From Ochrobactrum quorumnocens (lineage in GTDB: Bacteria > Pseudomonadota > Alphaproteobacteria > Rhizobiales > Rhizobiaceae), in contig NZ_CP022604.1 in assembly GCF_002278035.1 (NCBI RefSeq), positions 558,001 to 622,000 of the forward strand: DNA of 64,000 nt. The letters run 5' to 3'. The notes under the pieces were generated by a model, which was given only the letters and a program-made list of their open reading frames with translations, was not told the origin of the DNA and searched no databases. The translations under genes and the position numbers were made by a program. Below are positions 429-57,324 of the stretch, piece by piece. The number at the start of each line of letters is the position of its first letter. Position 1 is the first letter of the stretch.

Positions 429-536
429 CTAGAGCGTGTCGCGCTTAATAGCACCTATGACGCACGCTCTAGATTCTTTTAATTGTCGCATGTTCGCGGG
501 AGCTCGAATGAATCTATTTGAGCACGACATGCTTTA
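429..536. repeat. Mosaic intergenic repeat (CTAGAGC hairpin plus GACATGCTTTA module)
   Basis: A CTAGAGCGTG...ACGCACGCTCTAG hairpin is followed by a module ending ATTTGAGCACGACATGCTTTA, which also occurs near 32230. It matches the style of Rhizobiales intergenic mosaic elements (RIME-like). Its right end contains the TAA (read on the minus strand) that terminates the next gene. Confidence 0.7.
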
Positions 537-941
537 GCTACCGTTTGTCTTGTCCTTTGGGGACAGGCTTTTCATGACTGCTGCGTAATTGCGTCCAAGG
601 CTTTCAAACAAAGCATTCTCGCCAGTCAATGGGGCAACGGAAAGCGTTGTGCCGTCATTGCCCAACGTGACAAAAACAACCTGATCTTGTGGTTGGCCTG
701 CAATAGCAATAGCGCCAATACGTTGTGTTTCACTGGTGTCGAGCGCAGGCATGTTGAACAGAACTTCTCCGCCCACACGTTCTGCTGCCTTGGCAAGGGC
801 AGTGTCAAATCCTTCGATCAGAACGTCGATGGCTCCGAGCGCAAATTCAAGCTCGACTGCTTCCAGCGTCATTACATCCTGATCGGCTTCAGCAGCGCTG
901 GATGTAGCTGGCTCATGGCCATTATGAAGGGTGCGATCCAT
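534..941 (-). CDS. Hypothetical protein, acidic, 135 aa
   Basis: I do not recognise a family. The start is set at the ATG at 941 because GGAGAGGA lies 4 nt upstream; an in-frame start at 1013 would add 24 residues but lacks such a site. The protein is acidic at the N-terminus, has no signal peptide or membrane segment, and ends in a probable alpha/beta region (QDQVVFVTLGNDGTTLSVAPL). The stop codon TAA lies within the terminal TGCTTTA of the adjacent mosaic repeat, so the repeat boundary defines the C-terminus. It is divergent from the DUF1499 gene. Confidence 0.6.
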   Translation of the reverse strand: MDRTLHNGHEPATSSAAEADQDVMTLEAVELEFALGAIDVLIEGFDTALAKAAERVGGEVLFNMPALDTSETQRIGAIAIAGQPQDQVVFVTLGNDGTTLSVAPLTGENALFESLGRNYAAVMKSLSPKDKTNGS

Positions 942-1158
942 GTCGTCCTCTCCGACGAATCCGAAAAAAGCCCCCATATACGCGATCATGCCCTTCGTTA
1001 GAAGTTGCTGCAATAGCTTTTATATTGATTTCACTCTATTTTTCCCGCTCATTCTTTGTAACTGGATGAATTGACAGTGCGTGCCTTGCCTTTTCCTTTT
1101 GCGTCCGAGCTCTCTCTGTTATGCATGGAAGCGCTCTGAAACGCGGTTGGGATCCTGC

Positions 1159-1947
1159 ATGAGAAAACTTCGCTATCAACGCCGACAGTCTCGTTCAGCC
1201 ATTTGGGCTTTGCGTTTTGGCGTATTTGCGGCCGTGCTTTCAGCGCTGGGTCTTATCCTGCACAGGTTCGGCAAGCTGGAAACGCCGGATTTTGTTCTGG
1301 TCGCTATCCTCGGTGGTGGGCTTGCGATACTCGCGCTGTTATGTGCCGCAAAAGGACTACGTAATTTGTGGGTCAATGGCGACAAGGGTGGAGCACGCTC
1401 TTTCTGCGGCAGCTTTCTGGCTTTTGCAGTTCTGCTGCCGCTCTGTTTTGTAGGCTCTCTATGGTATGGCTCGCCACAGCTTTATGATCTGACAACTGAT
1501 TTTGAGACGCCGCCACAGTTTCCATCGACAATGCCAGCCCGCTTGCCGGGCATGAACGCGCTCTCAGTTGATGTTGCCGCGGATATGATAGGGCAAATGT
1601 CAGCCTATCCGGATGTAATGGGGCGCCGTTATCCCGCAGCTCCAGATCGGGTTGCGCAAGGGGTAGAAAATACCCTCAAGGCCTTTGGCTGGACGCAGAT
1701 TAGTCGCGACATTCCTTTGCCAGAGCAGAATGCTACGCGTTTTGCTGCGACGGCCCACAGCACTTTTCTTGGCTTGAAGAGCGATGTGGTTATCCGTCTG
1801 CTTGATGAAGGCGAAACCACCTATGTCGATATGCGATCCTTGTCGCGTTACGGCAAACGGGACATGGGGCTGAATGCCGCCTTTATAACCGAGTTTTTGT
1901 CGGCACTCGAAGGCGAGGTCAACAAGGCTCCAGCCGATGTTGAATGA
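1159..1947 (+). CDS. DUF1499 domain-containing membrane protein, 262 aa
   Basis: The basic N-terminus (MRKLRYQRRQSR) is followed by three hydrophobic segments within the first ~110 residues. A C-terminal DUF1499 domain then starts near TPPQFPSTMPARLPG and contains the conserved SDVVIRLLDEGETTYVDMRS and SRYGKRDMGLNA stretches. ATG 1159 is chosen over an upstream start at 1081 because the family-like sequence begins there. DUF1499 has no established function. The stop TGA abuts the stop of the convergent MBL-fold gene, forming TGATCA with no gap. Confidence 0.75.
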   Translation: MRKLRYQRRQSRSAIWALRFGVFAAVLSALGLILHRFGKLETPDFVLVAILGGGLAILALLCAAKGLRNLWVNGDKGGARSFCGSFLAFAVLLPLCFVGSLWYGSPQLYDLTTDFETPPQFPSTMPARLPGMNALSVDVAADMIGQMSAYPDVMGRRYPAAPDRVAQGVENTLKAFGWTQISRDIPLPEQNATRFAATAHSTFLGLKSDVVIRLLDEGETTYVDMRSLSRYGKRDMGLNAAFITEFLSALEGEVNKAPADVE

Positions 1948-2853
1948 TCAGCGCGGCTGATAGATCCCATTCAGGGATGGATAGCCATCAGTGATGATTT
2001 CCCCGCGTCCGACGAGATCTTCGAGATGCGCCAGTACCGAGAGTGCTGCAGCACCATGCAGACGTGGGTCGGTTTCGCGATAGATCGCTTTGACCATATC
2101 CGGGATCGTGCGATCGCCTTGAACGATCCGCTCCAGTATTGCGCGTTCTCGCATTTTACGATGTGCACGCAATCCCCGCACAAACGCCGCCGGCTTTGTG
2201 ACTGCACCTCCATGGCCAGGCAGATAGATATCATCATCGCGTTCAAGCAGCTTCTCAAGCGAAGCCATGTAATCGCTCATTGAACCGTCTGGTGGCGCAA
2301 CGATAGACGTCGCCCATGCCATCACATGATCGGCAGAAAACAGGATGCCTGTGCCTTCGAGGCCGAAGGCCATGTGGTTGGCTGCATGGCCGGGGGTGTG
2401 TATCCCGCGCAGCGCCCAACCGTCGCCGTCGATCTTTGCACCATCGGACAGGACCAGATCGGGCGCGAAATCGGTATCGGCACTTGCCTCAAGAAAGTTC
2501 ACTTCGCCGCTATAATAAGGACGGGCGGGGCGATGTGGACCCTCGGCAACAACAAGCGCACCAGTCTGTTCCTTCAGCTGCCTTGCGAGGGGGGAATGGT
2601 CGCGATGGGTATGGCTTACAAAAATATGACTCACAGGGCGCTTGGCGATTGCAGCGAGAAGAGCCTGAAAATGCTCTTCGTTCTCTGGACCTGGATCGAT
2701 AACGGCGAGCGTATCTGTCCCTATGATATAGCTGTTTGTGCCATGAAATGTAAAAGCGCTCGGATTATTCGCAGTCAGGCGGAGCAGGTCTTTACGCAAG
2801 GCAACCGGCGCCCCATATTCCGGGGAGAAGCTGCCGTCGAAATCAAGCGCCAT
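1948..2853 (-). CDS. MBL-fold metallo-hydrolase, 301 aa
   Basis: The metal-binding motif HTHRDH is visible in VSHIFVSHTHRDHSPLA, preceded by FHGTNSYIIG...AVIDPGPE and followed by GIHTPGHAANHMAF, DHVMAWATS and LPGHGG, which supply the later metal ligands. This is the glyoxalase II / beta-lactamase-like fold. The C-terminus carries the winged-helix-like extension of the LACTB2 type (RAHRKMRERAILERI). A GTG at 2964 in the same frame would add 37 residues, but ATG 2853 fits the family start and leaves ~138 bp for divergent promoters with bioY. The substrate is unknown. Confidence 0.75.
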   Translation of the reverse strand: MALDFDGSFSPEYGAPVALRKDLLRLTANNPSAFTFHGTNSYIIGTDTLAVIDPGPENEEHFQALLAAIAKRPVSHIFVSHTHRDHSPLARQLKEQTGALVVAEGPHRPARPYYSGEVNFLEASADTDFAPDLVLSDGAKIDGDGWALRGIHTPGHAANHMAFGLEGTGILFSADHVMAWATSIVAPPDGSMSDYMASLEKLLERDDDIYLPGHGGAVTKPAAFVRGLRAHRKMRERAILERIVQGDRTIPDMVKAIYRETDPRLHGAAALSVLAHLEDLVGRGEIITDGYPSLNGIYQPR

Positions 2854-2991
2854 TGAATAATCCAACTCGTTTTGGTTTGTCGGTTTGTATTGTTGCAATT
2901 CTTCGAACGGCTTAGGACGAATATAGTCCGGTTTCAAATGATTATCTGGTGAAGCGATACTCACAGCGCCGATTATAGGAGTGAGACAAAG

Positions 2992-5523: not shown

Positions 5524-5583
5524 CGCACTATCGATTGGACGCAACGGTTTAGCTGCGTCCTCTGATCGCAATCTGCCGCATTT

Positions 5584-5687
5584 ACAGCGGTTCCAGTTAA
5601 TATTGAATCGTTGGAGCCGCTTTAACTAATTTTTTTTACGCATTTCCGAACGCAAAGCCGGTTCCCACTTTTGCTGGAAATGCTTTA
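5584..5687. repeat. Mosaic intergenic repeat (GGTTCCAGTT...GGAGCCGCT hairpin plus GCATTTCC...GGAAATGC module)
   Basis: A hairpin module (AGCGGTTCCAGTTAAT...GTTGGAGCCGCTTTAA) is joined to a second module (GCATTTCCGAACGCAAAGCC...TTTTGCTGGAAATGCTTTAA). The same two modules recur at 23275, 28949 and 57218. The terminal CTTTAA contains the TAA that ends the minus-strand AraC gene. Confidence 0.8.
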
Positions 5688-8422: not shown

Positions 8423-8544
8423 TTTATTCTCCTCGGGTTTCATCCTTGCATTTGAGCCAAAATTATAAGGCGGTTTTGCGTGGGATAATACGTAAAAACA
8501 AATAGTTAGAGTAGCTTCGGTAATCCGGCTTCAACAGAGTCGCT

Positions 8545-10200
8545 TTAACGATCGGAAACTTGCCAACGTGGGTTAATCCAGGGTTCCTGATTGGAGCGTG
8601 CTAGGGGCGTGCGGCCAAGAATGTGATCGGAAGCCTTTTCACCGGTCATAATCGACGGCCCATTGAGATTGCCGTTGGTTATACGCGGGAAAATAGACGA
8701 ATCTGCAACACGCAGGCCATCAATGCCGATAACACGACATTCAGGGTCAACGACGGCCATCGGATCGTCAACTGCACCCATCTTACAGGTTCCGCAAGGA
8801 TGGAATGCACTTTCCACATGTTCGCGGAGGAAGTTGTCGATCTCATCATCCGATTGCACATTTGCGCCGGGCTGAATTTCGGCGCCACTAAAGGGCGCGA
8901 AGGCATTCTGGCCGAATATTTCTCGGGTTAGCCGCACGCAATGGCGGAAGTCTGCCCAGTCATCCTCGTGCGACATATAGTTGAACTGAATCCGTGGCTT
9001 GTCTCGTGGGTTGGCCGAGCGAAGCGTCACACTGCCGCGCGATTTGGATCGCATTGGCCCGACATGTGCCTGAAATCCGTGAGACTCTGCTGCTGCCTTG
9101 CCGTCATAACGAATGGCGACTGGGAGGAAGTGATATTGAATATCGGGATATTCCACCCCTGCTTTCGAGCGCACGAAAGCGGCAGATTCAAAATGGTTGG
9201 TGGCGCCATCTCCTGATTTGAAGAACAGCCATTGCGCGCCGATCATCGCTTTCGAGAAAAGGTTGAGCTTGGAGTAGAGCGTGATGGGCTGCGTGCATTC
9301 CTGCTGGATATAGACTTCAAGATGATCTTGCAGATTTTGGCCTACACCGGGGCGGTCTGCCACTACATCAATTCCATGCTCTTTCAGCTGCACCGCAGGG
9401 CCAATGCCCGACAGCATCAGAAGCTTTGGTGAGTTGATAGACGAAGCCGCTATAATGACTTCGCGTCGTGCACGAATGGTTGAGAAGGTGCGACCTGCTT
9501 CGATTTCGACGCCCACGGCGCGTTTGCCCTCAAGCACGATCTTGCGTGCGAGGCCTTTGACGAGTTTGACATTCGGGCGCTTTAAAGCCGGTTTCAGATA
9601 GGCATTAGCCGCAGACCAGCGGCGTCCATTATGGATCGTCTGCTCCATCGGGCCGAAGCCTTCCTGCTTTTGGCCATTATAGTCTTCCGTGACTTCAAAA
9701 CCCGCTTGATGTCCCGCATCCACAAAGGCCTTGAATAGTGGATTATCGCGTCTGCCACGCTGAATATGCAACGGACCATCCGTACCGCGCCATCCGTCTT
9801 GTCCGCCATGCGAATTTTCCATCCGCTTGAAATAGGGCAACACATCGGCATAGGACCAGCCCCGCGCGCCACTTTCTGACCAATGGTCGTAATCGCGGGC
9901 ATGACCACGCACGTAAACCATGCCGTTGATCGAAGAGGAGCCGCCAACCACTTTGCCACGCGGCGTGACCAGGCTGCGTCCACCAATATGTGGTTCAGGT
10001 TCGGTAGAAAACCCCCAGTCGTACGTTTCCATATTCATGGGGAAGGAGAGGGCGGCAGGCATCTGGATCAGCGGTCCGATGTCCGGTCCGCCAAATTCGA
10101 TCACGATAACCGAATGTCTGCCGTCTTCGGAGAGGCGGTAGGCCATAGCTGAACCGGCAGAGCCGGAGCCGATGATAACGAAGTCCGCTTCCATGCTCAT
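8545..10200 (-). CDS. betA: Choline dehydrogenase (GMC oxidoreductase)
   Basis: The 551-residue FAD enzyme has the N-terminal dinucleotide fold [20 protein letters not shown] and the GMC signatures ([36 protein letters not shown]). The C-terminal active-site region includes [15 protein letters not shown] and [19 protein letters not shown]. It oxidises choline to betaine aldehyde at the membrane. Its ATG overlaps the betI TGA (ATGA at 10197-10200), which implies translational coupling. Confidence 0.95.
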
Positions 10201-23274: not shown

Positions 23275-23382
23275 TTAAAGCATTTCCAGCAAAAGTGGGA
23301 ACCGGTTTTGCGTTCGAAAATGCGTAAAAACAAATAGTTACAGCGGTTCCGACGATTCAATATTAACTGGAACCGCTGTAAC
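23275..23382. repeat. Mosaic intergenic repeat, two modules
   Basis: The GCATTTCCAGCAAAAGTGGG...GGTTTTGCG module is followed by AATGCGTAAAAACAAATAGT and the hairpin CAGCGGTTCCGACGATT...AACTGGAACCGCTG. This is the same arrangement as at 5584 and 57218, in the opposite orientation. Confidence 0.8.
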
Positions 23383-23459: not shown

Positions 23460-23565
23460 TAGAGCGCCGTGCACCCATTTGGGTGCACAAAGGTCGCTCT
23501 AACACTTTCAAATGAGAGCATAATTTTACCTTAAACTGATCCAAGTTTAAGGAATTATGCTCTAG
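23460..23565. repeat. Mosaic intergenic repeat, AGAGCGCCGTGC and GCATAATTCC modules
   Basis: Hairpin AGAGCGCCGTGCACCC...GGGTGCACAAAGGTCGCTCT is followed by GAGCATAATTTTACCTTAAA...TTTAAGGAATTATGCTC. The pair recurs inverted at 32280 and 33468, and the first hairpin alone occurs at 60001. Confidence 0.85.
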
Positions 23566-28948: not shown

Positions 28949-29053
28949 TAGAGCGGCTCCAATTGAGACTGAATCGTTGGAACCGCTCTATGTATTTGTT
29001 GTTACGTATTATCCTGAGCAAACCCGCATCGCACTTTGTTGGGAACGCTTTAA
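28949..29053. repeat. Mosaic intergenic repeat
   Basis: Hairpin TAGAGCGGCTCCAATTGAGA...GTTGGAACCGCTCTA is followed by a degenerate GCATCGCACTTTGTTGGGAACGCTTTAA module. It lies between mucR and the convergent small gene. Confidence 0.75.
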
Positions 29054-30942: not shown

Positions 30943-32250
30943 ATGCAAAGCAGTCGGCAAAATCTGGAACGAGTTCTGTCAAAGCTGGAGGCGCGTGCGG
31001 GCGACGAACAGGTGTTCGGCACGGTCTATGCGAATGAAGCACGTGCTGAGGCCGATGCTTCAGACAAACGCCTGCAAGAAGGGTGCTTGCGCGGTCCACT
31101 CGATGGTCGAATTGTTTCGATCAAAGATTTGTTCGATGTGAAAGGGGAGCCGACATTAGCGGGTTCCGTCATTCGCAAATCGGCTTTGCATGCGCAGTGC
31201 GATGCAGTCGTCGTGCAGAGATTGAAAGATGCTGGCGCCGTCATTGTCGGCAAAACGCATATGACCGAATTTGCATTTACCGCGGTTGGATTAAACCCGC
31301 ATTACGGCGTGCCGGGTAATGCGATTGATTCAAATAGAGTCCCCGGCGGCTCCTCCTCAGGAGCTGCGGTTTCTGGAGCTGAAGGCACCAGCGAGATTGC
31401 CATCGGTTCCGATACAGGAGGCTCCATTCGCATCCCTGCGGCTCTGAACGGCTTGGTCGGTTTTAAGCCGACCGCGCGCCGCATTCCCTTGGATGGTGCT
31501 TTTCCGCTCACGCCCGCTCTTGATTCAATCGGACCTTTGGCAAAGACTGTTGCCGACTGCATTCTTGCAGATGCTGTAATGGCTGGTGAAGCGCCCAATC
31601 TGCCAGAGGCAGCATCATTAAGCGGTCTGACTATAGGATTGCCAAAAGGGCTACTTTTGTCAGAGTTGGTGCCGGAGGTGGCGGCTGCGTTCGATTCCGC
31701 AATTTCAGTTCTGGTTGCAGCTGGTCTGCCGATTGTTGAACTGGAATTGGATGATCTCATTCTTCAACTACGCGATGCGACGCGCATCGGTTCGATCGTT
31801 GGCATCGCGGCCAGTCGTATTCATGCCGAAACATGGCTCAAAGACCCAGATGCGAATGTCGATGACAGGGTAAAGCATACGCTTGCAAAGCGGTTGAACG
31901 TCTCCGATGAGGACTTCACGGCGTTGATGCATACGAGAACAAGGCTCGTATCTGAAGTGGATCAGCGGCTCGCTGGTATCGATTTTTTTGTGACGCCGAC
32001 AACGCCGATTGTCGCGCCCACAATTGCATCGGTCAGCGAGGATGCTGCGGAATATGATCGCGTTGAGGGGCTTTTGTTGCGAAATACGCAAATTGCCAAT
32101 CAGTTCGATCTTTGTAGCATAACACTACCCCTACCAGTTACGGGAATGCCGGTCGGTCTGATGATGACAGCACGCAATGGAACCGACAGGCAGTTGTTGT
32201 CCGCAGCACTTTTAGTAGAGCAGTTGCTAAAGCATGTCGCAGTTAAATGA
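30943..32250 (+). CDS. Amidase (amidase signature family)
   Basis: The 435-residue protein has the Ser-cisSer-Lys triad regions: Lys in GRIVSIKDLFDVKGEPTLAG (near 75), and the serines in VPGGSSSGAAVSGAEG and AIGSDTGGSIRIPAALNG. FKPTARRIPLDGAFPLTPALD follows. Such enzymes hydrolyse amides or allophanate-like compounds; the substrate cannot be deduced. ATG 30943 is used, 5 nt after GGGGG. The last residues and the TGA stop lie in a mosaic repeat that starts at ~32229. Confidence 0.88.
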   Translation: MQSSRQNLERVLSKLEARAGDEQVFGTVYANEARAEADASDKRLQEGCLRGPLDGRIVSIKDLFDVKGEPTLAGSVIRKSALHAQCDAVVVQRLKDAGAVIVGKTHMTEFAFTAVGLNPHYGVPGNAIDSNRVPGGSSSGAAVSGAEGTSEIAIGSDTGGSIRIPAALNGLVGFKPTARRIPLDGAFPLTPALDSIGPLAKTVADCILADAVMAGEAPNLPEAASLSGLTIGLPKGLLLSELVPEVAAAFDSAISVLVAAGLPIVELELDDLILQLRDATRIGSIVGIAASRIHAETWLKDPDANVDDRVKHTLAKRLNVSDEDFTALMHTRTRLVSEVDQRLAGIDFFVTPTTPIVAPTIASVSEDAAEYDRVEGLLLRNTQIANQFDLCSITLPLPVTGMPVGLMMTARNGTDRQLLSAALLVEQLLKHVAVK

Positions 32251-32379
32251 ACCCATTTGAGCGCGACATACTCTACAGAATAATTCCTTAAACTTGAATC
32301 AGTTTAAGGTAAAATTATGCTGTAAATATAAAGTGTTAGAGCGATCTTTGTGTGCCCAAGGGCGCGCACGGCGCTCTAG
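32229..32379. repeat. Mosaic intergenic repeat, three modules
   Basis: The AAAGCATGTCGCAG...GCGCGACATACTCTA module is followed by AATTCCTTAAACTTGAATCA...AATTATGCT and by TTAGAGCGATCTTTGTG...GGCGCTCTAG. The left end encodes the C-terminus and stop of the amidase; the right end provides the stop (TAG on the minus strand) of sufE. Confidence 0.85.
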
Positions 32380-32801: not shown

Positions 32802-32900
32802 GATACTTGCCCGAAATCCATTTGGTATATGCGGCCTATATAGTGATAAAAGCCGCAAACGTCACGGAAAACCGTTGGTCTTTGTGGGAATTGCGCCGGT

Positions 32901-32968
32901 TGGATAATGCGTAAGAATAGATAGTTAGAGCGGTTCCGACGATTCGATCTTAGCTGGAACCGCTTTAA
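32901..32968. repeat. Mosaic intergenic repeat
   Basis: AATGCGTAAGAATAGATAGT precedes the hairpin TTAGAGCGGTTCCGACGATT...AGCTGGAACCGCTTTAA. Read on the minus strand, it encodes the last residues ...IESSEPL and the TAA stop of the DUF5330 gene. Confidence 0.8.
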
Positions 32969-33467: not shown

Positions 33468-33576
33468 TTAGAGCATAATTCCTTAAACTTGGATCAGTTT
33501 AAGGTAAAATTATGCTCTCATTTTAAAGTGTTAGAGCGACCTTTGTGCGCCCAAATGGGCGCACGGCGCTCTAGAG
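33468..33576. repeat. Mosaic intergenic repeat, GCATAATTCC and GCGCTCTAG modules
   Basis: TTAGAGCATAATTCCTTAAA...AAATTATGCTCT is followed by TTAGAGCGACCTTTGTGCGC...GCGCACGGCGCTCTAG. It is nearly identical to the repeat at 23460, inverted. Confidence 0.85.
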
Positions 33577-36593: not shown

Positions 36594-36962
36594 GGTCTGT
36601 TGAGAATTAGGATTTGGAGCCCGGTATGAGAGAAAATCGTTCAGCTTCAACAGCAAAGCCGATGGTGGAGCATATCTCCATCAAGGCTTTGCGATGCAAA
36701 AATGGGCGATTTTCACCATATCCTTCGGACGCGGCGAATTTCACTGCAGAATGCGTCGAACAGGCCCTCATGGTGTTTACACCACTTCGGCCGTTTCGTC
36801 AGTTCTGCAACAAAATGCGCGCGTGCGACGCTGGAAACCCAGAGCATTTCCTGTTTAAGATGAATCGTTAGAAATGCTTTATCTTTTTGTTTTTGCGCAT
36901 GTCTTTTTCCCAAAACCGGTTCTCACTTTTGGGGGACATGCTCTAGTTTTCAACAAACCCTA
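36591..36962. mobile_element. MITE-like element, ~370 bp, with 14-bp terminal inverted repeats
   Basis: The left end TAGGGTCTGTTGAGAA and right end TTTTCAACAAACCCTA are inverted copies with two mismatches and both end in TA, as expected for a TA target duplication (IS427/IS630-type insertions). The inside has no transposase; it contains a hairpin around GATGGTGGAGC...CTCCATC and, near its right end, a mosaic repeat. Confidence 0.5.
36866..36946. repeat. Mosaic repeat inside the MITE-like element
   Basis: GTTAGAAATGCTTTATCTTT...TTTTTGCGCAT, then AAAACCGGTTCTCACTTTTG and GGGACATGCTCTAG. It is closely similar to the repeat at 39596. Confidence 0.75.
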
Positions 36963-38424: not shown

Positions 38425-38466
38425 GTTAGAGCGGTTTCAGTCCCGCTTTTGGCTAAAATGCTTTAA
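38425..38466. repeat. Short mosaic repeat
   Basis: AGTTAGAGCGGTTTCAGTCC...GGCTAAAATGCTTTAA is a shortened copy. Its CTTTAA end provides the TAA stop of the minus-strand DUF1254-like gene. Confidence 0.65.
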
Positions 38467-39595: not shown

Positions 39596-39702
39596 CTAGA
39601 GCGTTTTTGGTTTAGTTTTGGTCATTAGAAATGCTCTATCTCTTTGTTTTTGCGCACATCTTATTCGGAAAGCCGGTTCCCACTTTTCGGGATGTGCTCT
39701 AT
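39596..39702. repeat. Mosaic repeat between DUF1214 and PBP genes
   Basis: CTAGAGCGTTTTTGGTTTAG...GAAATGCTCTATCTCTTTG, then TTTTTGCGCACATC...CGGTTCCCACTTTTCGGG and ATGTGCTCTA. It reaches the 3' end of the PBP gene at one side and the start codon of the DUF1214 gene at the other. Confidence 0.8.
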
Positions 39703-43900: not shown

Positions 43901-43928
43901 AAATTCAGAGAAATTGGAGAGCCAATAT

Positions 43929-46163: not shown

Positions 46164-46174
46164 TCAGGATCAAT

Positions 46175-47461: not shown

Positions 47462-47469
47462 AGACGCGC

Positions 47470-47494: not shown

Positions 47495-47619
47495 ACAGTC
47501 CTTTTTGGGGAAACCCTGCCGATTTTGGCAGCTAGATTCAGTTCGCGAACACGTTGAATCTTTTTCTGGGGTGTCATGCGTAACTGTCTGATTTGAGAGT
47601 TATTTTAAGGGGAAAATAA

Positions 47620-48688: not shown

Positions 48689-49058
48689 GGTCTTGAAGAA
48701 CGACGACGAACTTATTGAAACTCTTGGTGGTGAACACGTTTACGATCACGTGCCACCTAAAACACCTTTTCCCTATGTCACGTTGGGTGAAACACTCAGT
48801 AAAGACTGGAGTACAGCAAGTGAGCCGGGGGGCGAGCATTTTCTCAATATCCAGATATGGGCGCGCGAGGCAGGGCGCAAACGCGTGCTTGATATTGCCG
48901 GGCGCATTGCCACGCGGCTCGACGAGGAACCGCTCGAAGTGAATGGTCATCGGGTGATCAATCTCATGCTGACCGAAGTTTTGGCACGTAACACCGACGG
49001 TTTCGGCAGTTATCTTGGCACCATGCGTTATCGCGCCGTGACCGAACCTGCTGATTAG
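48648..49058 (+). CDS. GTA tail terminator protein, DUF3168 (g8)
   Basis: The 136-residue protein matches DUF3168/gp17-like tail terminators: ALQKALYEVLKNDDELIETL, VYDHVPPKTPFPYVTLGETL, HFLNIQIWAREAGRKRVLDI and NLMLTEVLARNTDGFGSYLG. ATG 48648 is preceded by GCGGGGATCAAA. The TAG stop is the first three bases of a mosaic repeat. Confidence 0.88.
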   Translation: MKNGASALQKALYEVLKNDDELIETLGGEHVYDHVPPKTPFPYVTLGETLSKDWSTASEPGGEHFLNIQIWAREAGRKRVLDIAGRIATRLDEEPLEVNGHRVINLMLTEVLARNTDGFGSYLGTMRYRAVTEPAD

Positions 49059-49195
49059 AGCGCATCCCGAAAAGTGTGAAGCTATTTTCGGACGAAATGC
49101 ACTCAAAAACAAATACTTAGAGCGGACCCGTTCTAGTCGTGAGATATTACGCGTTTCCGGATGCAAAGCCTATTTTCATTTAGCTGGAAATGCTC
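49056..49195. repeat. Mosaic repeat inside the GTA cluster, between g8 and g9
   Basis: The TAGAGCGCATCCCGAAAAGT module ends near AAATGCACTC, followed by AAAAACAAATACTTAGAGCG and a degenerate ATTACGCGTTTCCGG...GCTGGAAATGCTC module. It puts ~150 bp of hairpin-forming sequence between genes that are normally tightly packed. Confidence 0.75.
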
Positions 49196-49212
49196 AAATC
49201 AAGGATCAATAA

Positions 49213-49626: not shown

Positions 49627-49970
49627 TGGTCAATCGCCATCGTGGCGAGGTCGCGGCAAAACTCGATGGCCGCGACTGGACACTCTGCCTTACACTTGGC
49701 GCGCTTGCGGAGTTGGAAGCGGCATTTGAAGCAGATAATCTCTCAGACCTCATTGCACGCTTTTCGACAGGCCGACTTGCAGCCCATGATATGCAGCGCA
49801 TCATTTGCGCGGGCCTCCACGGTGGTGGTCATAATGTGAGCTATGACGACGTTTCGGAAATGCGAGCTGAAGGCGGTGCAGCCGGGTTCGCATATATCGT
49901 TTCATCACTTCTGACAGCCACATTCGGAAGTGCTGAAAAGCCGGAAAGCGATTCCGCGTCAAACCCTTGA
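49623..49970 (+). CDS. GTA tail assembly chaperone family protein (g10)
   Basis: The 115-residue protein matches GTA TAC-like proteins: NRHRGEVAAKLDGRDWTLCL, TLGALAELEAAFEADNLSDL, RFSTGRLAAHDMQRIICAGL and HNVSYDDVSEMRAEGG. Tandem ATG codons at 49623 and 49626 are both possible starts. It assists tail assembly around the tape measure. Confidence 0.88.
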   Translation: MMVNRHRGEVAAKLDGRDWTLCLTLGALAELEAAFEADNLSDLIARFSTGRLAAHDMQRIICAGLHGGGHNVSYDDVSEMRAEGGAAGFAYIVSSLLTATFGSAEKPESDSASNP

Positions 49971-50182
49971 GTGCCGCAGTTGAATCAAGCCCTTCACATA
50001 AACCTTTCCCATGGGCTGAGGTGATGCGGGCAGGATTTGGTTTGCTGCGGCTTTCCTCAAAAGACTTCTGGGCAATGACCCCGCGTGAATTTTCAGCGGC
50101 CTTGGGGCCCGTATCGCGCAACACAAATGCCCCCTCGCGTGCGGCGCTTGATGCGCTCATGCACACTTTTCCCGACAGGTAA
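49967..50182 (+). CDS. Small tail assembly chaperone (g10.1)
   Basis: The 71-residue protein starts at a TTG that overlaps the g10 stop (TTGA). FPWAEVMRAGFGLLRLSSKD and FWAMTPREFSAALGPVSRNT match the small phage tail assembly chaperone family found in this place in Rhodobacter-type GTA. The conserved W and LSP/LSS-x-FW pattern supports it. Confidence 0.82.
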   Translation: MSAAVESSPSHKPFPWAEVMRAGFGLLRLSSKDFWAMTPREFSAALGPVSRNTNAPSRAALDALMHTFPDR

Positions 50183-50187
50183 TTTAA

Positions 50188-50736
50188 ATGACAGACGAAA
50201 CTGTAACCGTTTCCGTTGAGGCAGATACGAGCGCGTTCGATCATGCGTTGACCGATCTTGAAAAGCGCTCGTCAAGCTTCGGCTCCAACCTCACGACGGC
50301 ACTCAAAAGCGCTATCGTTTCCGGTAAGGGACTGGAAGATGTGCTGCGCGGCCTCGCAAGCAACTTGGCCGGCTCGGCACTTTCCGCCGGCCTTCAGCCG
50401 CTACAAAATTTAGGCTCGTCGATGATGTCGGGCATGATGACTGGTATTCGTGGCATCATGCCGTTTGCCAAAGGCGGTGTGGTTTCCAGTCCGACTTACT
50501 TTGGCATGGGCAATGGTTCTCTGGGCCTGACCGGAGAAGCTGGCGCAGAAGCCATTCTGCCGCTCGCGCGTGGTGCTGATGGACGACTTGGAGTCGCCAC
50601 CGGCGGCAATTCTGGAAAACCTGTGCAGGTCGTCTTCAATATGTCTTCGCCTGATGCATCCTCTTTCCGCAAATCTGAAGCGCAGCTTTCAACCATGCTG
50701 GCGGGTGCGGTCCGTCGCGGTGCCCGGAGATTGTGA
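50188..50736 (+). CDS. GTA tail tape measure protein, short (g11)
   Basis: The 182-residue protein: N-terminal VEADTSAFDHALTDLEKRSS, a helical middle (LEDVLRGLASNLAGSALSAG), and the C-terminal motif FAKGGVVSSPTYFGMGNGSL, GLTGEAGAEAILPLARGADG typical of GTA and lambda-like tape measures. The small size agrees with the short tail of GTA particles. It sits 5 bp after g10.1. Confidence 0.9.
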   Translation: MTDETVTVSVEADTSAFDHALTDLEKRSSSFGSNLTTALKSAIVSGKGLEDVLRGLASNLAGSALSAGLQPLQNLGSSMMSGMMTGIRGIMPFAKGGVVSSPTYFGMGNGSLGLTGEAGAEAILPLARGADGRLGVATGGNSGKPVQVVFNMSSPDASSFRKSEAQLSTMLAGAVRRGARRL

Positions 50737-50737
50737 G

Positions 50738-51367
50738 ATGGAAGCCTTTCATGATGTCCGATTTCCACTCGGAGTCTCTTTTGGCGCAACCGGTGGCCCG
50801 GAATGGCGTAATGAAATCATTACACTCACATCCGGTATGGAAAAGCGCAACGCACGCTGGGCACATTCCCGTCGCCATTTTGATGCAGGCACAGGATTGC
50901 GTTCGCTTGATGATCTGAAAGCAGTGCTTGCCTTCTTCGAGGCCCGGCACGGTTCGCTCCATACTTTTCGTTTCCGCGATCCGTTCGACTTTTCATCTGC
51001 TGCCGGGAGTGTGGCACCGTCGCCGTTCGATCAACAGATTGGCGTTGGCAACGGAATACGTGCGAAATACCAGCTCATCAAACGCTATGAAACTTATGAC
51101 CGTCCGATTACACGGCCCGTTAGTGGATCGGTGCAGATTGGCGTCGACGGAGTGCGGCTCGCGGAAGGCGAGGCTTTCACAATCGATAATGTGACAGGTA
51201 ACGTGATTTTCATGCCTGATTATCTGCCCGGAGAGGGAGCCACCGTGACGGCTGGTTTTCTGTTCGATGTACCAGTGCGTTTCGATACTGACCTGCTGAT
51301 GGCCAGCATTGCGTCGTTCCAGGCAGGCGAAATCCCCTCCATTCCGATCATTGAGGTTAAAGCATGA
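50738..51367 (+). CDS. GTA distal tail protein, DUF2460 (g12)
   Basis: The 209-residue protein matches DUF2460: FHDVRFPLGVSFGATGGPEW, TLTSGMEKRNARWAHSRRHF, DAGTGLRSLDDLKAVLAFFE, ARHGSLHTFRFRDPFDF and PVRFDTDLLMASIASFQAGE, IPSIPIIEVKA. ATG 50738 immediately follows the g11 stop. It forms the distal tail ring. Confidence 0.93.
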   Translation: MEAFHDVRFPLGVSFGATGGPEWRNEIITLTSGMEKRNARWAHSRRHFDAGTGLRSLDDLKAVLAFFEARHGSLHTFRFRDPFDFSSAAGSVAPSPFDQQIGVGNGIRAKYQLIKRYETYDRPITRPVSGSVQIGVDGVRLAEGEAFTIDNVTGNVIFMPDYLPGEGATVTAGFLFDVPVRFDTDLLMASIASFQAGEIPSIPIIEVKA

Positions 51368-52239
51368 TTCCTGTTCCGGCAGCGCTTGAATCACACTTGA
51401 AGGGTGAAGTCACAACCCATTGCTTTGCCTGGCTTATAAGACGTTCGGATAGTGCCGTGCTCGGTTTTACAGACCATGATCGTGACTTGTTTCTGGATGG
51501 AATTGCCTGCGAGCCTTTGACCGGTCTGAACAGTAGCGAAGCCACGACAACGCTCGGGCTTTCTGTTGCGGGCGGCGAGGTCGAAGGCGCTCTGTCGTCA
51601 ACACGCATCAGCGATGTTGATATCGAGCAGGGGCGCTATGATGGGGCGGTCATAGAAAGCTATCTGGTCAACTGGTCAAGTTCTGAACAGCACATGCTTT
51701 TGCGACGCTGGACAGTTGGAACGATCAGCCGATCGGGTGGCCGATTTGTCATGGAACTGAAAGGCGCTGCGGCGGCTTTCGATGCCGTTTGTGGCCGCCG
51801 GATACTACGTCAATGCAACGCTGTTTTAGGCGATGAACGCTGTGGTGTGAACCAAATCGATCCACGGTTCTCTGCTTTTGGTTCGGTCAATGTTGCCGAG
51901 GGTGCTGTGCTGATGGTGAGTGGACTTCAAGGATTTGCAAGCGGCTGGTTTGCGGAGGGACTGCTGACCTGGACGAGCGGCAAGAACGCGGGGAAAGCAA
52001 TTCGTGTTCTGGGGCAGAATGGCAGCAGTCTGCGCCTGATCGAGTCGTCGGTTTTGCCAGTGAAAGTTGGTGACACGTTTCGCATTGTTGCCGGCTGCGA
52101 CAAGAGCTTTGCCACCTGCAAAGCAAAATTTTCAAATGGCACCAATTTTCAAGGCTTTCCGCACCTTCCCGGGAATGATGCAGCCTTTGCCTATGTGAGC
52201 GGCGGTAACGAATATGACGGAAGTGCATTGGTGCCATGA
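51364..52239 (+). CDS. GTA tail hub protein, DUF2163 (g13)
   Basis: The 291-residue protein matches DUF2163 with the C-terminal phage BR0599-like domain: HLKGEVTTHCFAWLIRRSDS, LGFTDHDRDL, VCGRRILRQCNAVLGDERCG and GCDKSFATCKAKFSNGTNFQ, GFPHLPGND. The conserved cysteines (QCN, RCG, GCDKSFATC) are arranged like the iron-sulfur ligands of lambda gpL-like tail hubs, an inference. It overlaps its neighbours by 4 bp on both sides. Confidence 0.92.
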   Translation: MIPVPAALESHLKGEVTTHCFAWLIRRSDSAVLGFTDHDRDLFLDGIACEPLTGLNSSEATTTLGLSVAGGEVEGALSSTRISDVDIEQGRYDGAVIESYLVNWSSSEQHMLLRRWTVGTISRSGGRFVMELKGAAAAFDAVCGRRILRQCNAVLGDERCGVNQIDPRFSAFGSVNVAEGAVLMVSGLQGFASGWFAEGLLTWTSGKNAGKAIRVLGQNGSSLRLIESSVLPVKVGDTFRIVAGCDKSFATCKAKFSNGTNFQGFPHLPGNDAAFAYVSGGNEYDGSALVP

Positions 52240-52670
52240 TGGTTGTCGAGAAAGTTTTGGCCGAGGCCGGAAACTGGATAGGGACGCCCTATCGCCACGG
52301 CGCATCAATGCGCGGTGTAAGCTGTGACTGTCTTGGGCTGGTCCGTGGTATTTGGCGGACGCTTTACGGCGTTGAGCCAGAACATCCGGGGATCTACGCC
52401 CCTGACTGGGCAGAGGCTGCATCGGGCGATCCGCTCATGGAAGCGGCGCACAGGCATATGAGAGTGCGTGTCAGCAGTGCTCCCCAACCGGGGGACTTGC
52501 TCATCTTCCGCTGGCGCCCCGATGTCGCGGCGAAGCATCTCGGCATCATGATACGGGAAAACCGTTTTATCCACGCCTATGAGGGGCATTGCGTGATGGC
52601 GTCTGCACTGGTGCCGCAATGGCGAAAGCGTATCGCCGGAACTTTTATCTTCCCTGAAGCGAAAGTGTGA
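52236..52670 (+). CDS. GTA NlpC/P60 family peptidase (g14)
   Basis: The 144-residue cysteine peptidase: IGTPYRHGASMRGVSCDCLG (catalytic Cys in CDCLGL near residue 31), DLLIFRWRPDVAAKHLGIMI and RFIHAYEGHCVM with the catalytic His region. It should cut peptidoglycan peptides during DNA delivery through the cell wall. Confidence 0.93.
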   Translation: MMVVEKVLAEAGNWIGTPYRHGASMRGVSCDCLGLVRGIWRTLYGVEPEHPGIYAPDWAEAASGDPLMEAAHRHMRVRVSSAPQPGDLLIFRWRPDVAAKHLGIMIRENRFIHAYEGHCVMASALVPQWRKRIAGTFIFPEAKV

Positions 52671-52673
52671 GTA

Positions 52674-55600
52674 ATGGCAACAATCGTTCTGCAAGCGGTC
52701 GGTGCTGCTGTTGGCGGCATTTTTGGCCCCGTTGGGGCCGTGATCGGTGCTGGTTTGGGCGCTATGGGGGGCTATGCCGTTGATACCGCGATCATCAACT
52801 CGACCCGCCATATGGAGGGTGCACGTCTCAATGGTGGCCGCGTAGCAACAGCAGAAGAAGGTGCAGCACTACCCTTGGTCTACGGCACGGCACGACTTTC
52901 AGGTACATTGATCTGGGCGACACGGTTTGAGGAAAAGAAAACCACCGAACGCCAAGGCGGCAAAGGTGGTCCGAAAGTGACCAGCTATAGCTATTTCGGT
53001 AACGCAGCCTATGCTGTTGCGGAAGGCGAAATTGCTGGCATCCGTCGTGTCTGGGCTGATGGTCAGGAACTTGATCTCACTGAAGTCGATATGCGTATCT
53101 ATCTGGGCACGCAGGAACAACAGCCCGATCCTTTGATTGAGGCCAAGCAGGGTGCAGGCAATGCGCCTGCCTATCGTGGCACTGCTTACGTGGTGTTTGA
53201 GCGTATTCCGCTCGATGTGTTTGGAAATCGTCTACCGCAATTTCAGTTCGAGGTCATGCGGCCGGTTGGTAAGGTGGCGCGCGATATTCGTGCTGTCGCG
53301 CTCATTCCCGGGTCTACCGAGTTTGGCCTCTCGCCAAGTCCGGTCAGTGACAGGCCTTTCCCTGGTGAAAGCCGCACGCTCAACCGCAATGCGAAGCGCG
53401 GGCATAGCGATTGGACTGTCGCTATGGATGAGTTGCAGATGCTCTGCCCGAACCTGCGGCATGTGGCGATTGTTCTGCCGTGGTTTGGCAATGATCTGAG
53501 GGCTGGTGCGTGCACCATTCGCCCGGGCGTCACGCATCAGAGTTCATTCTCGTCGAGCCGGGCCTGGAAGGTAGAAAATATCACGCGTGCTGATGCGCAC
53601 CTTATTTCGACCAGTGGTGAGGGTGCTGCTTATGGCGGCACACCTTCAGATCAGAGCGTAATCGATGCAATCCGTGATGCGAAAGCGCGCGGCCTGAAGG
53701 TAACGCTTTATCCGTTCATCATGATGGACGTGCCAGCCGATAATCAATTGCCATCACCATATGGCGGTGTCGGCCAATCAGCCTATCCATGGCGCGGGCG
53801 TATCACTTGCCATCCTGCAATCGGTGTAGCTGGCTCACTTGATAAGACAGCCGAGGCAGGAAATCAGGTCACAGCTTTCGTCAACGGAACATGGGGTTAC
53901 AGGCGTTTCCTGAATCACTGTGCAAATCTGGCGTTGCAGGCCGGTGGCGTCGATGCCTTTTTGCTTGGCTCAGAATTGCGCGGGCTCACCAGCATCCGCG
54001 ACAGTCGTGAAAGCTTTCCGTTTGTCACACACCTTTGCACACTCGCCACTGAGATGCGCACAAAGCTTGGACAAAGCTGCCGCATTACCTATGGCGCGGA
54101 TTGGACCGAATATTTTGGTTATCAGGCGCAGGATGAAACCGGCGATCTGTTTTTCAATCTCGATCCGCTGTGGTCACATCCTGCGTTGGATGCAATTGGC
54201 ATCGACAATTATATGCCGCTTGCCGATTGGCGGGATGACGATTTTGATGGGGGAAATCCTGATAGCTTCGAAGGCCCTTATGATCTCAATGGTCTGACAA
54301 CCAGCATAGAAACGGGTGAGGGCTTCGACTGGTATTATGGGAGCAGCGAAGATCGTGTTGCGCGTATTCGTACTCCAATCAGTGATGGGCTTGCTGGTAA
54401 ACCTTGGGTCTATCGCTACAAGGACATTCGCGCGTGGTGGAGCAATCCCCATTATAATCGCATTGATGGCGCGGAGGCTGCCACACCGACAGCTTGGGTG
54501 CCGCAATCCAAGCCGATCTGGTTTACAGAACTCGGATGCCCGGCAGTCGACAAAGGGCCGAACCAACCCAATGTCTTTCCTGATCCCAAATCATCGGAAA
54601 ATGCGACGCCTTATTTCTCAAACGGTTCACGCGCCGATATCGGTATGGATCGTTTCCTGCGCGCACATTTCAGACACTGGCCTGAAAACAACCCGGTATC
54701 GTCGGTGTATGGCGGTTCGATGCTGGACATGGATCGCGTTTATTTGTGGTCTTGGGATACGCGACCATTTCCGGAGTTTCCGCTGAAAGGTGACGTATGG
54801 GGAGATACGCCGAACTGGCGCCTCGGTCATTGGCTTAACGGGCGTATCAGTGGAGTTTCGCTTGATGAACTGATAGCTGCCATACTGGCGGACTTTGGAT
54901 TGCCAGAGGCCGATTGTGCCGCGGCCGATGGGCACCTCACTGGTTTTGTGATTTCGGAACCGTCAACAGCACGTGGTGTTCTGGAGCCGCTGATGAACGT
55001 GTTTGGCGTCCATGGTTTTGAGCAGGCCGGGCGGTTCGTATTTCGGAGCGTCGCTCGTGCGGCACCGACGCTTGATGTAGTGCATATGTTGGTCGAGCCA
55101 CAGGATGGCGAAGCATTGAGTTCTGTTCTCGACGATCAGGGCGATCTGCCTTCTATTGCCGAACTATACTGCAACGATCCGATGCGTGACTTTCAGGTGC
55201 TTGGGGCCTCTGTGCGTCGGGATACAGGGCAGGGCACGGAAAGCCTTAGCCTGTCTGGTTCGATGGAAACTGGGCAGGCAACGGCTCTCGCCGAAAGCTG
55301 GATGGCGCGCCGCTATGCTGAACGGCGGACCGCGAGTTTCTCTTTGCCGTGGTCTGAAGCAGCGCTTCACGTCGGCGACCGTGTCCGGCTTGATGTCTTG
55401 GGCGGCGGGCGCGACTATGTCGTAACGGCGTTGGAAGACGGAGAAGTACGGGCTGTCAAAGCCGTCGCACTTGCACCGAATATTGTGTTTGCAGACAAAG
55501 GTGAAACTCCCAAGCTTCCGCCGGGAAAACCGGTCTCCGATATGAAGCCGATTTTCCATCTCATCGACCTGCCGCTTTGGCCGAGCGCGGAAGATCCCGC

Positions 55601-56486
55601 GGGTCAGTTCCGCATCGCTTGTCATGCGAAACCATGGCGTGGCGTCGCGGTTTACGCCTCACCGTCTGATGATGGCTTTGCCGAACGCAGCCTGATCAGC
55701 GAGCGCGCTGTGATGGGTGAACTGACAAAGCCAATTAAGGGAGCTCCAAGCGGACGTTTGATCGACGGGAATGCGATAGAACTTGTGCTTTATTCAGGTG
55801 AACTGGGATCAAAGCCGCTTGCTCAGATTCTGAACGGGGCCAATACGGCGTTTTTAAAATCTCCCAATGGAAAATGGGAAGCTTTTCAGTTTCTCGAAGC
55901 AGAGGAAATCGGACAAAACCGCTGGCGATTGAGCAGACTTTTACGCGGGCAGCTTGGTACGGAAACAGAAAGCCTTATTGAGAAGCCAGTCGGGACCCCG
56001 TTTGTATTGTTTGATGGTGGAGTGCAGGGCATAGGACTGCAAGCTTCTGAAATAGGGCTTGAGCTTAACTGGCGTATAGGGGCAGCAGGCAAATCATTCT
56101 CGGATGAATTTTTTGATACAGCGAAAGCGATCGGCGGCTTGCAAGCCCTGGAGCCTCTAAGCCCGGTACATCTCAAGACTGAACAACTCGAGAATGGTGA
56201 CTTATCCTTTCAGTGGGTCAGGCGAGGGCGGATCGATGCTGATAGTTGGATGGGCGCGGATATCCCGCTTGGTGAAGAGCGTGAAGTCTATCAGGTGGAA
56301 GTCTGGCAGTCCGATAAGCTGGTGCGAAGCGCACAGGTGCAGACCACGTCCTGGATCTATCCGAATCCAGAGCGCTTTGCTGAACTCGGCACGAATGAAT
56401 TCCAGATTCGCGTAGCAATGGTGAGTTCCAAAACAGGAGCCGGTGATTTCACTACGCTCGATACTTCAAACATTCTGTTAAAATGA
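52674..56486 (+). CDS. GTA tail tip / host specificity protein with TIM-barrel domain (g15)
   Basis: The 1270-residue protein has an N-terminal hydrophobic segment (ATIVLQAVGAAVGGIFGPVG), a phage tail region (PLVYGTARLSGTLIWATRFE), a glycoside-hydrolase-like TIM barrel (~400-720, with LGSELRGLTSIRDSRESFPF, YGADWTEYFGYQAQDETGDL, DAIGIDNYMPLADWRDDDFD, PIWFTELGCPAVDKGPNQPN) and tail domains to the end (PPGKPVSDMKPIFHLIDLP). It matches the GTA 'megatron' that forms the tail fibre hub and touches the recipient cell. It is full length and intact. Confidence 0.94.
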   Translation: MATIVLQAVGAAVGGIFGPVGAVIGAGLGAMGGYAVDTAIINSTRHMEGARLNGGRVATAEEGAALPLVYGTARLSGTLIWATRFEEKKTTERQGGKGGPKVTSYSYFGNAAYAVAEGEIAGIRRVWADGQELDLTEVDMRIYLGTQEQQPDPLIEAKQGAGNAPAYRGTAYVVFERIPLDVFGNRLPQFQFEVMRPVGKVARDIRAVALIPGSTEFGLSPSPVSDRPFPGESRTLNRNAKRGHSDWTVAMDELQMLCPNLRHVAIVLPWFGNDLRAGACTIRPGVTHQSSFSSSRAWKVENITRADAHLISTSGEGAAYGGTPSDQSVIDAIRDAKARGLKVTLYPFIMMDVPADNQLPSPYGGVGQSAYPWRGRITCHPAIGVAGSLDKTAEAGNQVTAFVNGTWGYRRFLNHCANLALQAGGVDAFLLGSELRGLTSIRDSRESFPFVTHLCTLATEMRTKLGQSCRITYGADWTEYFGYQAQDETGDLFFNLDPLWSHPALDAIGIDNYMPLADWRDDDFDGGNPDSFEGPYDLNGLTTSIETGEGFDWYYGSSEDRVARIRTPISDGLAGKPWVYRYKDIRAWWSNPHYNRIDGAEAATPTAWVPQSKPIWFTELGCPAVDKGPNQPNVFPDPKSSENATPYFSNGSRADIGMDRFLRAHFRHWPENNPVSSVYGGSMLDMDRVYLWSWDTRPFPEFPLKGDVWGDTPNWRLGHWLNGRISGVSLDELIAAILADFGLPEADCAAADGHLTGFVISEPSTARGVLEPLMNVFGVHGFEQAGRFVFRSVARAAPTLDVVHMLVEPQDGEALSSVLDDQGDLPSIAELYCNDPMRDFQVLGASVRRDTGQGTESLSLSGSMETGQATALAESWMARRYAERRTASFSLPWSEAALHVGDRVRLDVLGGGRDYVVTALEDGEVRAVKAVALAPNIVFADKGETPKLPPGKPVSDMKPIFHLIDLPLWPSAEDPAGQFRIACHAKPWRGVAVYASPSDDGFAERSLISERAVMGELTKPIKGAPSGRLIDGNAIELVLYSGELGSKPLAQILNGANTAFLKSPNGKWEAFQFLEAEEIGQNRWRLSRLLRGQLGTETESLIEKPVGTPFVLFDGGVQGIGLQASEIGLELNWRIGAAGKSFSDEFFDTAKAIGGLQALEPLSPVHLKTEQLENGDLSFQWVRRGRIDADSWMGADIPLGEEREVYQVEVWQSDKLVRSAQVQTTSWIYPNPERFAELGTNEFQIRVAMVSSKTGAGDFTTLDTSNILLK

Positions 56487-56499
56487 AAAAGGAAATTGC

Positions 56500-56706
56500 A
56501 TGATTGAAGATAAGCCTTGGTATCTGTCTCGTACTGTTTGGGCTGGATTGGTCGCTCTGTTTTTATCGTTGGCAGGCGCTTTCGGCCTTATCAGCGATAC
56601 GGTCGATCAGGGTGCTTTGACCGATATATTGCTGCAACTTGCGACCGGTATCGCCAGCCTTATTGCTGTCTTTGGCCGCTTAGGGGCAACTTCGCGCATT
56701 TCATAA
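56500..56706 (+). CDS. Holin-like small membrane protein at the end of the GTA cluster
   Basis: The 68-residue protein has two hydrophobic segments (TVWAGLVALFLSLAGAFGLI and LTDILLQLATGIASLIAVFG) separated by an acidic loop, and a short basic tail, like small phage holins. It starts 13 bp after g15, with AAAAAGGAAATTGC before the ATG. It may help release particles, although its function is not demonstrated. Confidence 0.65.
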   Translation: MIEDKPWYLSRTVWAGLVALFLSLAGAFGLISDTVDQGALTDILLQLATGIASLIAVFGRLGATSRIS

Positions 56707-56923
56707 TTTTACAAAGCGTGATAGCAAAGTTTTGAAAAGTGGCATAGTTCCGGAATGTTGACGAATGCTCCGGATAATATTATGCATAAAAACAACAGTT
56801 TAGAATGGCGTCAGCCGAGGGTATCTGGTTGATGCTGTTCTACAGACCAAAATTCCTTTGGGTCTATAAGCAGGGTGATCGTTCATGCATCGTTCAGCTG
56901 AGAGGCGCTATATAAGGGACATG
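56707..56923. other. Gap between the GTA cluster and feu genes
   Basis: The gap holds a degenerate repeat-like stretch (AATGCTCCGGATAATATTAT, GCATAAAAACAACAGTTTAG) and presumably the promoter of the FeuN-like gene. No ORF was found. Confidence 0.4.
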
Positions 56924-57220
56924 ATGAAACAGAACCCTGCTCTCAAAATTTTCGCGCTTCTGGCCGTTAGCATTGGTCTGTTGCCGGTTGATGCCGGTGC
57001 TTTGCCAATCGCTACGCCACAGAAGTCTAATCTTCTGGTCGCCGCGGCTGCGGATTGTGCGGCAGTGGGCGAACAAGTGGCTGCCTCACAGGGTGGCCAG
57101 TTGGCCAAGGCAACCCCGACCACACAGAATGGCCGCGCCATGTGTGTGATTGTGGTACTCGTACCTGGTCGCGATGGCGAACGCCCGCGCCGTGTAGAAG
57201 TAGCCGTACCCGCACAGTAG
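56924..57220 (+). CDS. Small secreted protein upstream of feuP (FeuN-like candidate)
   Basis: The ~98-residue protein has a signal peptide (KQNPALKIFALLAVSIGLLP... ending near AGALPIA) and a mature part with two cysteines (AADCAAVGEQVAASQGGQLA, RAMCVIVVLVPGRDGERPRR). In rhizobia a small periplasmic inhibitor, FeuN, is encoded just before feuP-feuQ, and place and size fit here; sequence identity could not be tested. ATG 56924 follows AAGGGACATG; ATG 56921 is equally possible. The TAG stop is the start of a mosaic repeat. Confidence 0.6.
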   Translation: MKQNPALKIFALLAVSIGLLPVDAGALPIATPQKSNLLVAAAADCAAVGEQVAASQGGQLAKATPTTQNGRAMCVIVVLVPGRDGERPRRVEVAVPAQ

Positions 57221-57324
57221 AGCAGTTCCAGTTACGATCGAATTGTTGAAACCGCGTCTCACTGTTTGTTCTTGCGCATTCTCCTACGCAAAACCGCTTC
57301 GCTCTTTTGCTGGAAATGCTTTAA
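57218..57324. repeat. Mosaic repeat between FeuN-like gene and feuP
   Basis: TAGAGCAGTTCCAGTTACGA...GTTGAAACCGCGTCT is followed by CTTGCGCATTCTCCTACGCA...CTTTTGCTGGAAATGCTTTAA. It lies inside the feu unit. Confidence 0.75.

What the first reader, a model, noticed from the sequence alone, without database searches (positions are those of the whole stretch)
429..57324. Mosaic repeats supply the stop codons of many genes
At least eight genes end at or within a repeat boundary: 534 (TAA), 5685 araC (TAA), 32250 amidase (TGA), 32376 sufE (TAG), 32925 DUF5330 (TAA), 38463 DUF1254 (TAA), 49058 g8 (TAG), 57220 FeuN-like (TAG). The repeat ends TAGAGC, CTAGAGC and CTTTAA carry stops in either direction. 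This suggests insertion near gene ends is tolerated or selected because the element itself provides a terminator of translation and a 3' hairpin.
Basis: seen in the sequence. Interest (0 to 1): 0.75.

Follow-up and report, generated by a model that had tools for sequence, protein, structure and literature searches.

The report
Tiny transposons slip into stop codons
Short mobile DNA repeats in this bacterium favour a four-letter target that stop codons nearly match, and because they copy part of the target and begin with the right letter they usually rebuild the stop codon they split, so the gene's protein stays the same.

Summary
The coincidence is real. All eight stops exist as listed; six lie exactly on the edge of a repeat. 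The interpretation needs turning round: the repeat did not bring a stop to a gene that lacked one, it landed at a stop that was already there. The repeats are non-coding elements of about 105 bp, flanked by a duplicated TA, mostly with ends TA-[G/A]AGC. Their target is YTAR: 56 of 66 intergenic insertions against 23% of intergenic TAs. TAA and TAG are TAR, so stops supply three of four target letters, and insertion at that TA rebuilds TAG or TAA in either orientation. Of 26 genes ending this way in four regions, 25 have an orthologue without a detected repeat there and 21 equal it in length. In own-genome samples outside the window 18 of 52 copies sit in a stop; random bases predict 3.0, any TA 10.1, YTAR 14.0 (P 0.047). 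Target choice plus avoidance of coding DNA explains most of the excess; selection is not needed. Two of the eight (amidase, 32925 gene) read into a repeat and take a tail and stop from it. An IS630-family element with matching ends and targets is the likely mobiliser.

The parts
430..536 (+). 107-bp element of a third, rarer class; its right TA is the TA of the stop of the gene at 534-1013
   Evidence: insertion scan; ends and stop; 8 matches to this class in six regions; orthologue ends in TAG in rhi; psg has a different element (class II-like by eye) at the same stop
534..536 (-). stop codon TAA at the element edge
5583..5687 (-). class I element, full length, TA at both ends
   Evidence: E 2.4e-25
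5685..5687 (-). stop codon TAA of the AraC-type regulator at the element edge; protein 2 aa longer than the orthologues compared
8448..8547 (+). partial class I element
   Evidence: E 2.7e-11
23276..23380 (+). class I element, intergenic
   Evidence: E 6.2e-28
23460..23564 (-). class II element, intergenic
   Evidence: E 6.4e-27
28949..29052 (-). class I element, intergenic
   Evidence: E 2.7e-20
32228..32275 (+). half-element into which the amidase gene reads; supplies the last residues KHVAVK and the TGA stop 32248-32250
   Evidence: most orthologues end in LLG or LLS before a TGA
32274..32378 (+). class II element, full length; its right TA is in the sufE stop
   Evidence: E 1.3e-26
32376..32378 (-). 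sufE stop, TAG here, TAA in rhi and pit without a detected element, same length
32898..32967 (+). truncated class I element; its hairpin 32926-32967 codes the tail (LKAVPAKIESSEPL) and stop 32925-32927 of the gene at 32925-33392; same tail in pit, not in rhi or psg
33469..33573 (+). class II element, intergenic
   Evidence: E 1.2e-28
36841..36945 (-). class I element with TA recognised at one end only
   Evidence: E 6.7e-21
38427..38465 (+).
39597..39701 (-). class I element, intergenic
   Evidence: E 2.3e-17
49056..49130 (+). partial class I element; its left TA is the TA of the stop 49056-49058 of a tail-completion-like gene; a degenerate copy lies at the same place in pit; same protein end in rhi, which has TGA
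57218..57220 (+). stop TAG here; TAA in all 7 orthologous loci that one search lists, five of them 111 aa from residue 1, two matched from residue 13
59975..60043 (+). partial class II element
   Evidence: E 2.2e-14

Best explanation
The repeats are non-autonomous transposons (MITEs) of the IS630 (Tc1/mariner) type. A transposase inserts them at the TA of YTAR and the TA is duplicated. Their ends are mostly TA-GAGC or TA-AAGC in both orientations, so when the target is the TA of a TAA or TAG stop, the near copy of TA plus the element's first purine is again a stop, and the far copy keeps the old stop. Such an insertion leaves the protein unchanged and survives; insertion elsewhere in coding DNA is mostly removed by selection. 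Shown here: element anatomy, TA duplication, YTAR target, unchanged protein length, excess over random placement, an IS630 with similar ends and the same target in the genome. Inferred: that this IS630 or a relative moves the elements, that an existing stop was the target in each case, and that purifying selection clears coding DNA.
For: Two main classes, each modelled at 105 bp with TA at both ends. A contiguous site without the element in a relative for 49 of 76 elements tested. Target YTAR in 56 of 66 intergenic insertions, background 23%. Rate per available TA over six regions: stops 1.4-5.0%, intergenic 0.15-0.71%, coding 0-0.05%. 25 of 26 stop-edge genes have an orthologue without a detected element there and 21 equal it in length. 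TAG is now the stop in 12 of 26 such genes (four regions) against 55 of 424 genes of the own region (rough Fisher P 1.7e-5). Different elements at one stop in different species: sufE (class II here, class I in psg) and the 534 gene. IS630 element in 3 copies of 1055 bp, targets CTAA, CTAA, TTAG; 29% of 220 element ends match its left end at 15 or more of 26 bases against 0.16% of 6212 random TA sites; best 21 of 26, random best 17.
Against: YTAR alone under-predicts slightly (33 against 26.5, P 0.016, with some copies shared by descent; 18 against 14.0, P 0.047 in the own genome), so an extra effect remains possible. The 26 genes include orthologous pairs. In 7 of 25 genes at least one orthologue without a detected element ends in TGA, and in 3 of these (one pair and 747689) all such orthologues do, so the stop before insertion is not shown there. 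'Without element' means no profile hit near the stop; two orthologue stops read TAAAGC and may hide a remnant, though both genes have another clean orthologue. The 11 stop-edge elements of the held-out regions were not compared with orthologues; some have flanks (GTAC, TTAC) that would not give a stop on the + side. Of the 49 sites the best relative shows TA in 26 and YTAR in 20; 9 align with gaps and 14 have another letter pair, and some matches may be chance. One of the three IS630 copies has GAAC instead of GAGC, and class II left ends match it less well. No transposition was observed.
Confidence: 0.87

Rival explanations
1. Positive selection: insertions at gene ends are kept because the repeat brings a stop or a protective 3' hairpin.
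For: Small excess over the YTAR model in the whole set (33 against 26.5, P 0.016) and in the own genome without the window (18 against 14.0, P 0.047). Two of four folded elements make strong hairpins.
Against: No significant excess in convergent gaps (16 against 13.3, P 0.13) or held-out regions (10 against 8.9, P 0.33). Orthologues already end at the same residue in 21 of 25 comparable genes. The element at 57218 folds no better than shuffles.
Confidence: 0.1
2. The stop in the repeat is really new: elements hit coding DNA just before the gene's end and truncate or extend the protein.
For: True for two of the eight window cases (amidase and the 32925 gene) and probably for the 8 of 110 elements whose only contact is a gene reading in. 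Two stop-edge genes (an orthologous pair) have a reconstructed TAT or TAC codon.
Against: Stop-edge genes equal an orthologue in length in 21 of 25 comparable cases, and in the TAT/TAC pair the pit orthologue without a detected element ends in TAA at the same residue.
Confidence: 0.08
3. Artefact: the gene caller or the wealth of stop triplets in the repeats places stops there.
For: Genes were called with a home-made dicodon caller.
Confidence: 0.02

Closest known systems
RUP of Streptococcus pneumoniae with IS630-Spn1 (PMC2229807, passages read)
   Same: 107 bp, stops in all six frames, ends like those of an IS630 in the same genome, TA-containing targets.
   Different: Other host; sequence not compared; insertion into stop codons not mentioned in the passages read.
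BOX elements of S. pneumoniae (PMC3049150, passages read)
   Same: 58 CDSs overlap BOX; in 36 the repeat encodes the stop codon at the extreme 3' end, without strong evidence of truncation against orthologues.
   Different: Proposed mobiliser is ISSpn2; no target-duplication explanation in the passages read.
Bru-RS1/Bru-RS2 of Brucella (Halling and Bricker 1994, not read; seen through passages of PMC10800456, PMC2267715, PMC3163539, PMC2266754)
   Same: Same bacterial group, 103-106 bp, palindromic, reported insertion sites for IS711, which duplicates the TA of YTAR; here an 841-bp IS with YTAR targets abuts elements in 11 of 15 copies.
RIME1 of Rhizobium (recalled; one search gave only a listing for the phrase 'intergenic mosaic element')
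   Same: Recalled as 108 bp with two palindromes, like class II.
   Different: Sequence not compared.
IS870 (Fournier 1993; only the title seen, in the reference list of PMC6471742; the paper itself is not held)
   Same: A TA-containing target (CTAG) generates a stop codon on insertion.
   Different: There the stop is that of the element's own ORF; here it is the host gene's.
RU-1 of enterobacteria (PMC2759123, passages read)
   Same: Small TA-ended repeat that gives a gene (there too an amidase) a new tail and stop, like the amidase case here.
   Different: Other sequence and host; there the normal stop was lost.

Membership tests
IS630-type MITE | short, without a transposase gene | tested here: met
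   seed copies 90-107 bp, models of 105 bp
IS630-type MITE | TA target duplicated on insertion | tested here: met
   clean sites such as 57218 (98.8% flank identity to rhi); best allele keeps TA in 26 of 49; in a scan not based on families 47 of 208 well-flanked insertions in 12 overlapping comparisons have a duplication holding TA
IS630-type MITE | terminal repeats like those of an IS630 in the genome | tested here: met
   weaker for class II
IS630-type MITE | moved in trans by that transposase | not testable with these tools
   needs a transposition assay
Bru-RS | 103-106 bp palindromic repeat of Brucella and kin | tested here: met
   length, hairpins in three of four copies folded; class I matched in 35 of 35 genomes of the genus that were searched, own included
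Bru-RS | insertion site for a YTAR-inserting IS of the IS711 kind | tested here: inconclusive
   11 of 15 copies of an 841-bp IS abut an element and all 15 targets are YTAR, but kinship of that IS to IS711 (842 bp, PMC3163539) was not tested
Bru-RS | sequence of Bru-RS1 or Bru-RS2 | not tested
   sequence not held
RIME1 | sequence and 108-bp two-palindrome form | not tested
   recalled only

The most novel reading that the evidence does not exclude
The ends are adapted to stop codons: a purine next to TA at both ends together with a YTAR target makes the host's stop codon a safe harbour in either orientation, so the family has evolved (or been kept) to use stop codons as a harmless niche, and it has turned a measurable share of TAA stops into TAG.
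Probability: 0.2. Interest if true: 0.7.

Novelty: new variant of a known kind. Interest (0 to 1): 0.55.

Why it matters
It gives one mechanical reason why small bacterial repeats so often end genes, which was noted for BOX without an explanation in the passages read. Any TA-duplicating element with a purine-first end and a YTAR-like target should show the same signature, so the rule can be tested in genomes already sequenced. It also warns annotators that a stop inside a repeat need not mean a shortened protein.

Tried and rejected
The first TA-null mishandled genes that read into elements and was redone with stricter rules; its figures are not used. A scan for insertions not based on families showed TA duplications but few clean sites, and its printed list was cut; the element-based test replaced it. 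No Rfam family reached its gathering score in the window. The 841-bp IS with 15 copies was first suspected as mobiliser; its ends (GGCTCC, GGGTCC) do not match the elements and it sits at their ends instead. One search failed on orientation and was redone; one search missed reversed copies and was redone. Other transposase loci were examined for matching ends only where a locus was returned. Literature: no paper was found that says target duplication restores a host gene's stop codon; the searches were made, in an open-access library only, so absence is not shown. On re-checking for this report I corrected the IS length (841, not 852 bp), counted orthologues ending in TGA, lowered one membership row to inconclusive and the confidence from 0.88 to 0.87, because three genes have only TGA orthologues.
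Full report
What was checked. The window lies in a 5.65-Mb genome close to Brucella (Ochrobactrum) pituitosa, grignonensis and rhizosphaerae, by a kinase 91, 91 and 88% identical.

What the repeats are. Four syntenic regions were compared: own, B. pituitosa (pit), G008 (psg, a label of mine) and B. rhizosphaerae (rhi). They gave insertions of about 100 bp bounded by TA. These form two main classes, each 105 bp with TA at both ends, and a rarer third of 107 bp (8 matches in six regions). With two held-out own regions there are 250 copies, 163 full length, 110 with TA at both ends. Of four copies folded, two pair much better than shuffles, one moderately, one not. Class I matches 43 of 60 genomes searched, among them 35 of 35 of the genus, own included.

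Where they land. Of the 110, 36 have a gene's stop at an edge, 8 only have a gene reading in, 66 are intergenic. YTAR holds at 56 of 66 intergenic sites (background 23%), 27 of 36 stop sites and 6 of 8 others. Joined flanks find a contiguous site without the element in a relative for 49 of 76 elements; the best allele has TA in 26 (YTAR in 20), gaps in 9 and other letters in 14. The clearest case is 57218-57323: relatives read CAGTAATG and the window has the element between two copies of that TA.

What happens to the gene. Of 26 stop-edge genes in the four regions (orthologous pairs included), 25 have an orthologue with no detected element at the stop and 21 equal one in length; the first such orthologue ends in TAA (19), TAG (1) or TGA (1). 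Of the other four, two (a pair) end in the same residues and differ in length elsewhere, one differs by one residue, and the AraC-type regulator is two residues longer. In 7 of 25 genes some such orthologue ends in TGA, in 3 all do. The 11 stop-edge elements of the held-out regions were not compared. TAG is the stop in 12 of the 26 against 55 of 424 genes of the own region (rough, as the 26 come from four regions). In the window six of eight cases are of this kind; the amidase and the 32925 gene read into repeats and take a tail and stop from them. Amidase and sufE converge on one TTAG, and different elements hit it here and in psg.

How far chance goes. For 98 elements (110 less 10 with a gene reading in and 2 with odd intervals) 33 sit in a stop. 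Expected: 5.2 for random bases, 20.0 for random TA, 26.5 for YTAR-weighted TA in the same gap (P 2e-31, 1.4e-5, 0.016). Own genome without the window: 18 of 52, expected 3.0, 10.1, 14.0 (P 3e-18, 5e-4, 0.047). Held-out own regions: 10 of 31, expected 7.4 for TA (P 0.087) and 8.9 for YTAR (P 0.33). Convergent gaps: 16 of 34, expected 11.0 and 13.3 (P 0.016, 0.13). The YTAR weights come from the intergenic sites of the same data, and the all-region set holds copies shared by descent. Of coding TAs 0 to 0.05% carry an element.

Why stops. TAA and TAG are TAR, and in frame TAR codons are stops only. A YTAR element thus has one in-frame site in a gene, its stop, and with a purine next to TA at both ends it restores a stop whichever way it inserts. 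Of 220 ends 101 begin GAGC, 48 AAGC, 28 CAGC, 7 TAGC; the last two would not restore a stop.

What moves them. One IS630-family element, three near-identical 1055-bp copies, has left ends TA-GAGCGATTTCCC (GAAC in one copy), right ends TA-GAGCAATTTCCC, and YTAR targets in 3 of 3. Element ends resemble its left end far more than random TA sites do. DNA relatives of it occur in 30 of 60 genomes searched, own included. Mobilisation itself is inferred.

Relation to known things. RUP with IS630-Spn1 is the closest working model (PMC2229807) and BOX the closest report of repeats encoding stops (PMC3049150). IS870 makes a stop from a CTAG target for its own gene (title only). IS711 duplicates the TA of YTAR and is associated with Bru-RS (PMC2266754, PMC3163539). 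Passages, not whole papers, were read.

Noticed in passing
L156-L170 (15 loci of G000): An 841-bp insertion sequence (PF13340 and PF01609 in two frames) with YTAR targets in all 15 copies abuts a repeat element at one or both ends in 11 of 15, much as IS711 (842 bp) is reported at Bru-RS.
   Followed up: partly
32200-32400: Convergent amidase and sufE genes share one TTAG; two elements lie in tandem there and psg has another element at the same TA.
   Followed up: yes
42587-56486: A run of co-oriented genes including a tail-completion-like protein (48591-49058) and a 1270-aa protein looks like a phage-derived cluster, with a repeat at one internal stop.
   Followed up: no
12494-12536 and 30836-30878: Short modules like GCATCCCGAAAAGTGTGAAACGG that did not score as class I or II copies.
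   Followed up: no
G042: One 3.3-Mb genome of the genus has a single class I match among 6 candidates, where the other genomes of the genus have at least 14 (only 14 candidates per genome were scored); possible loss of the family.
   Followed up: no
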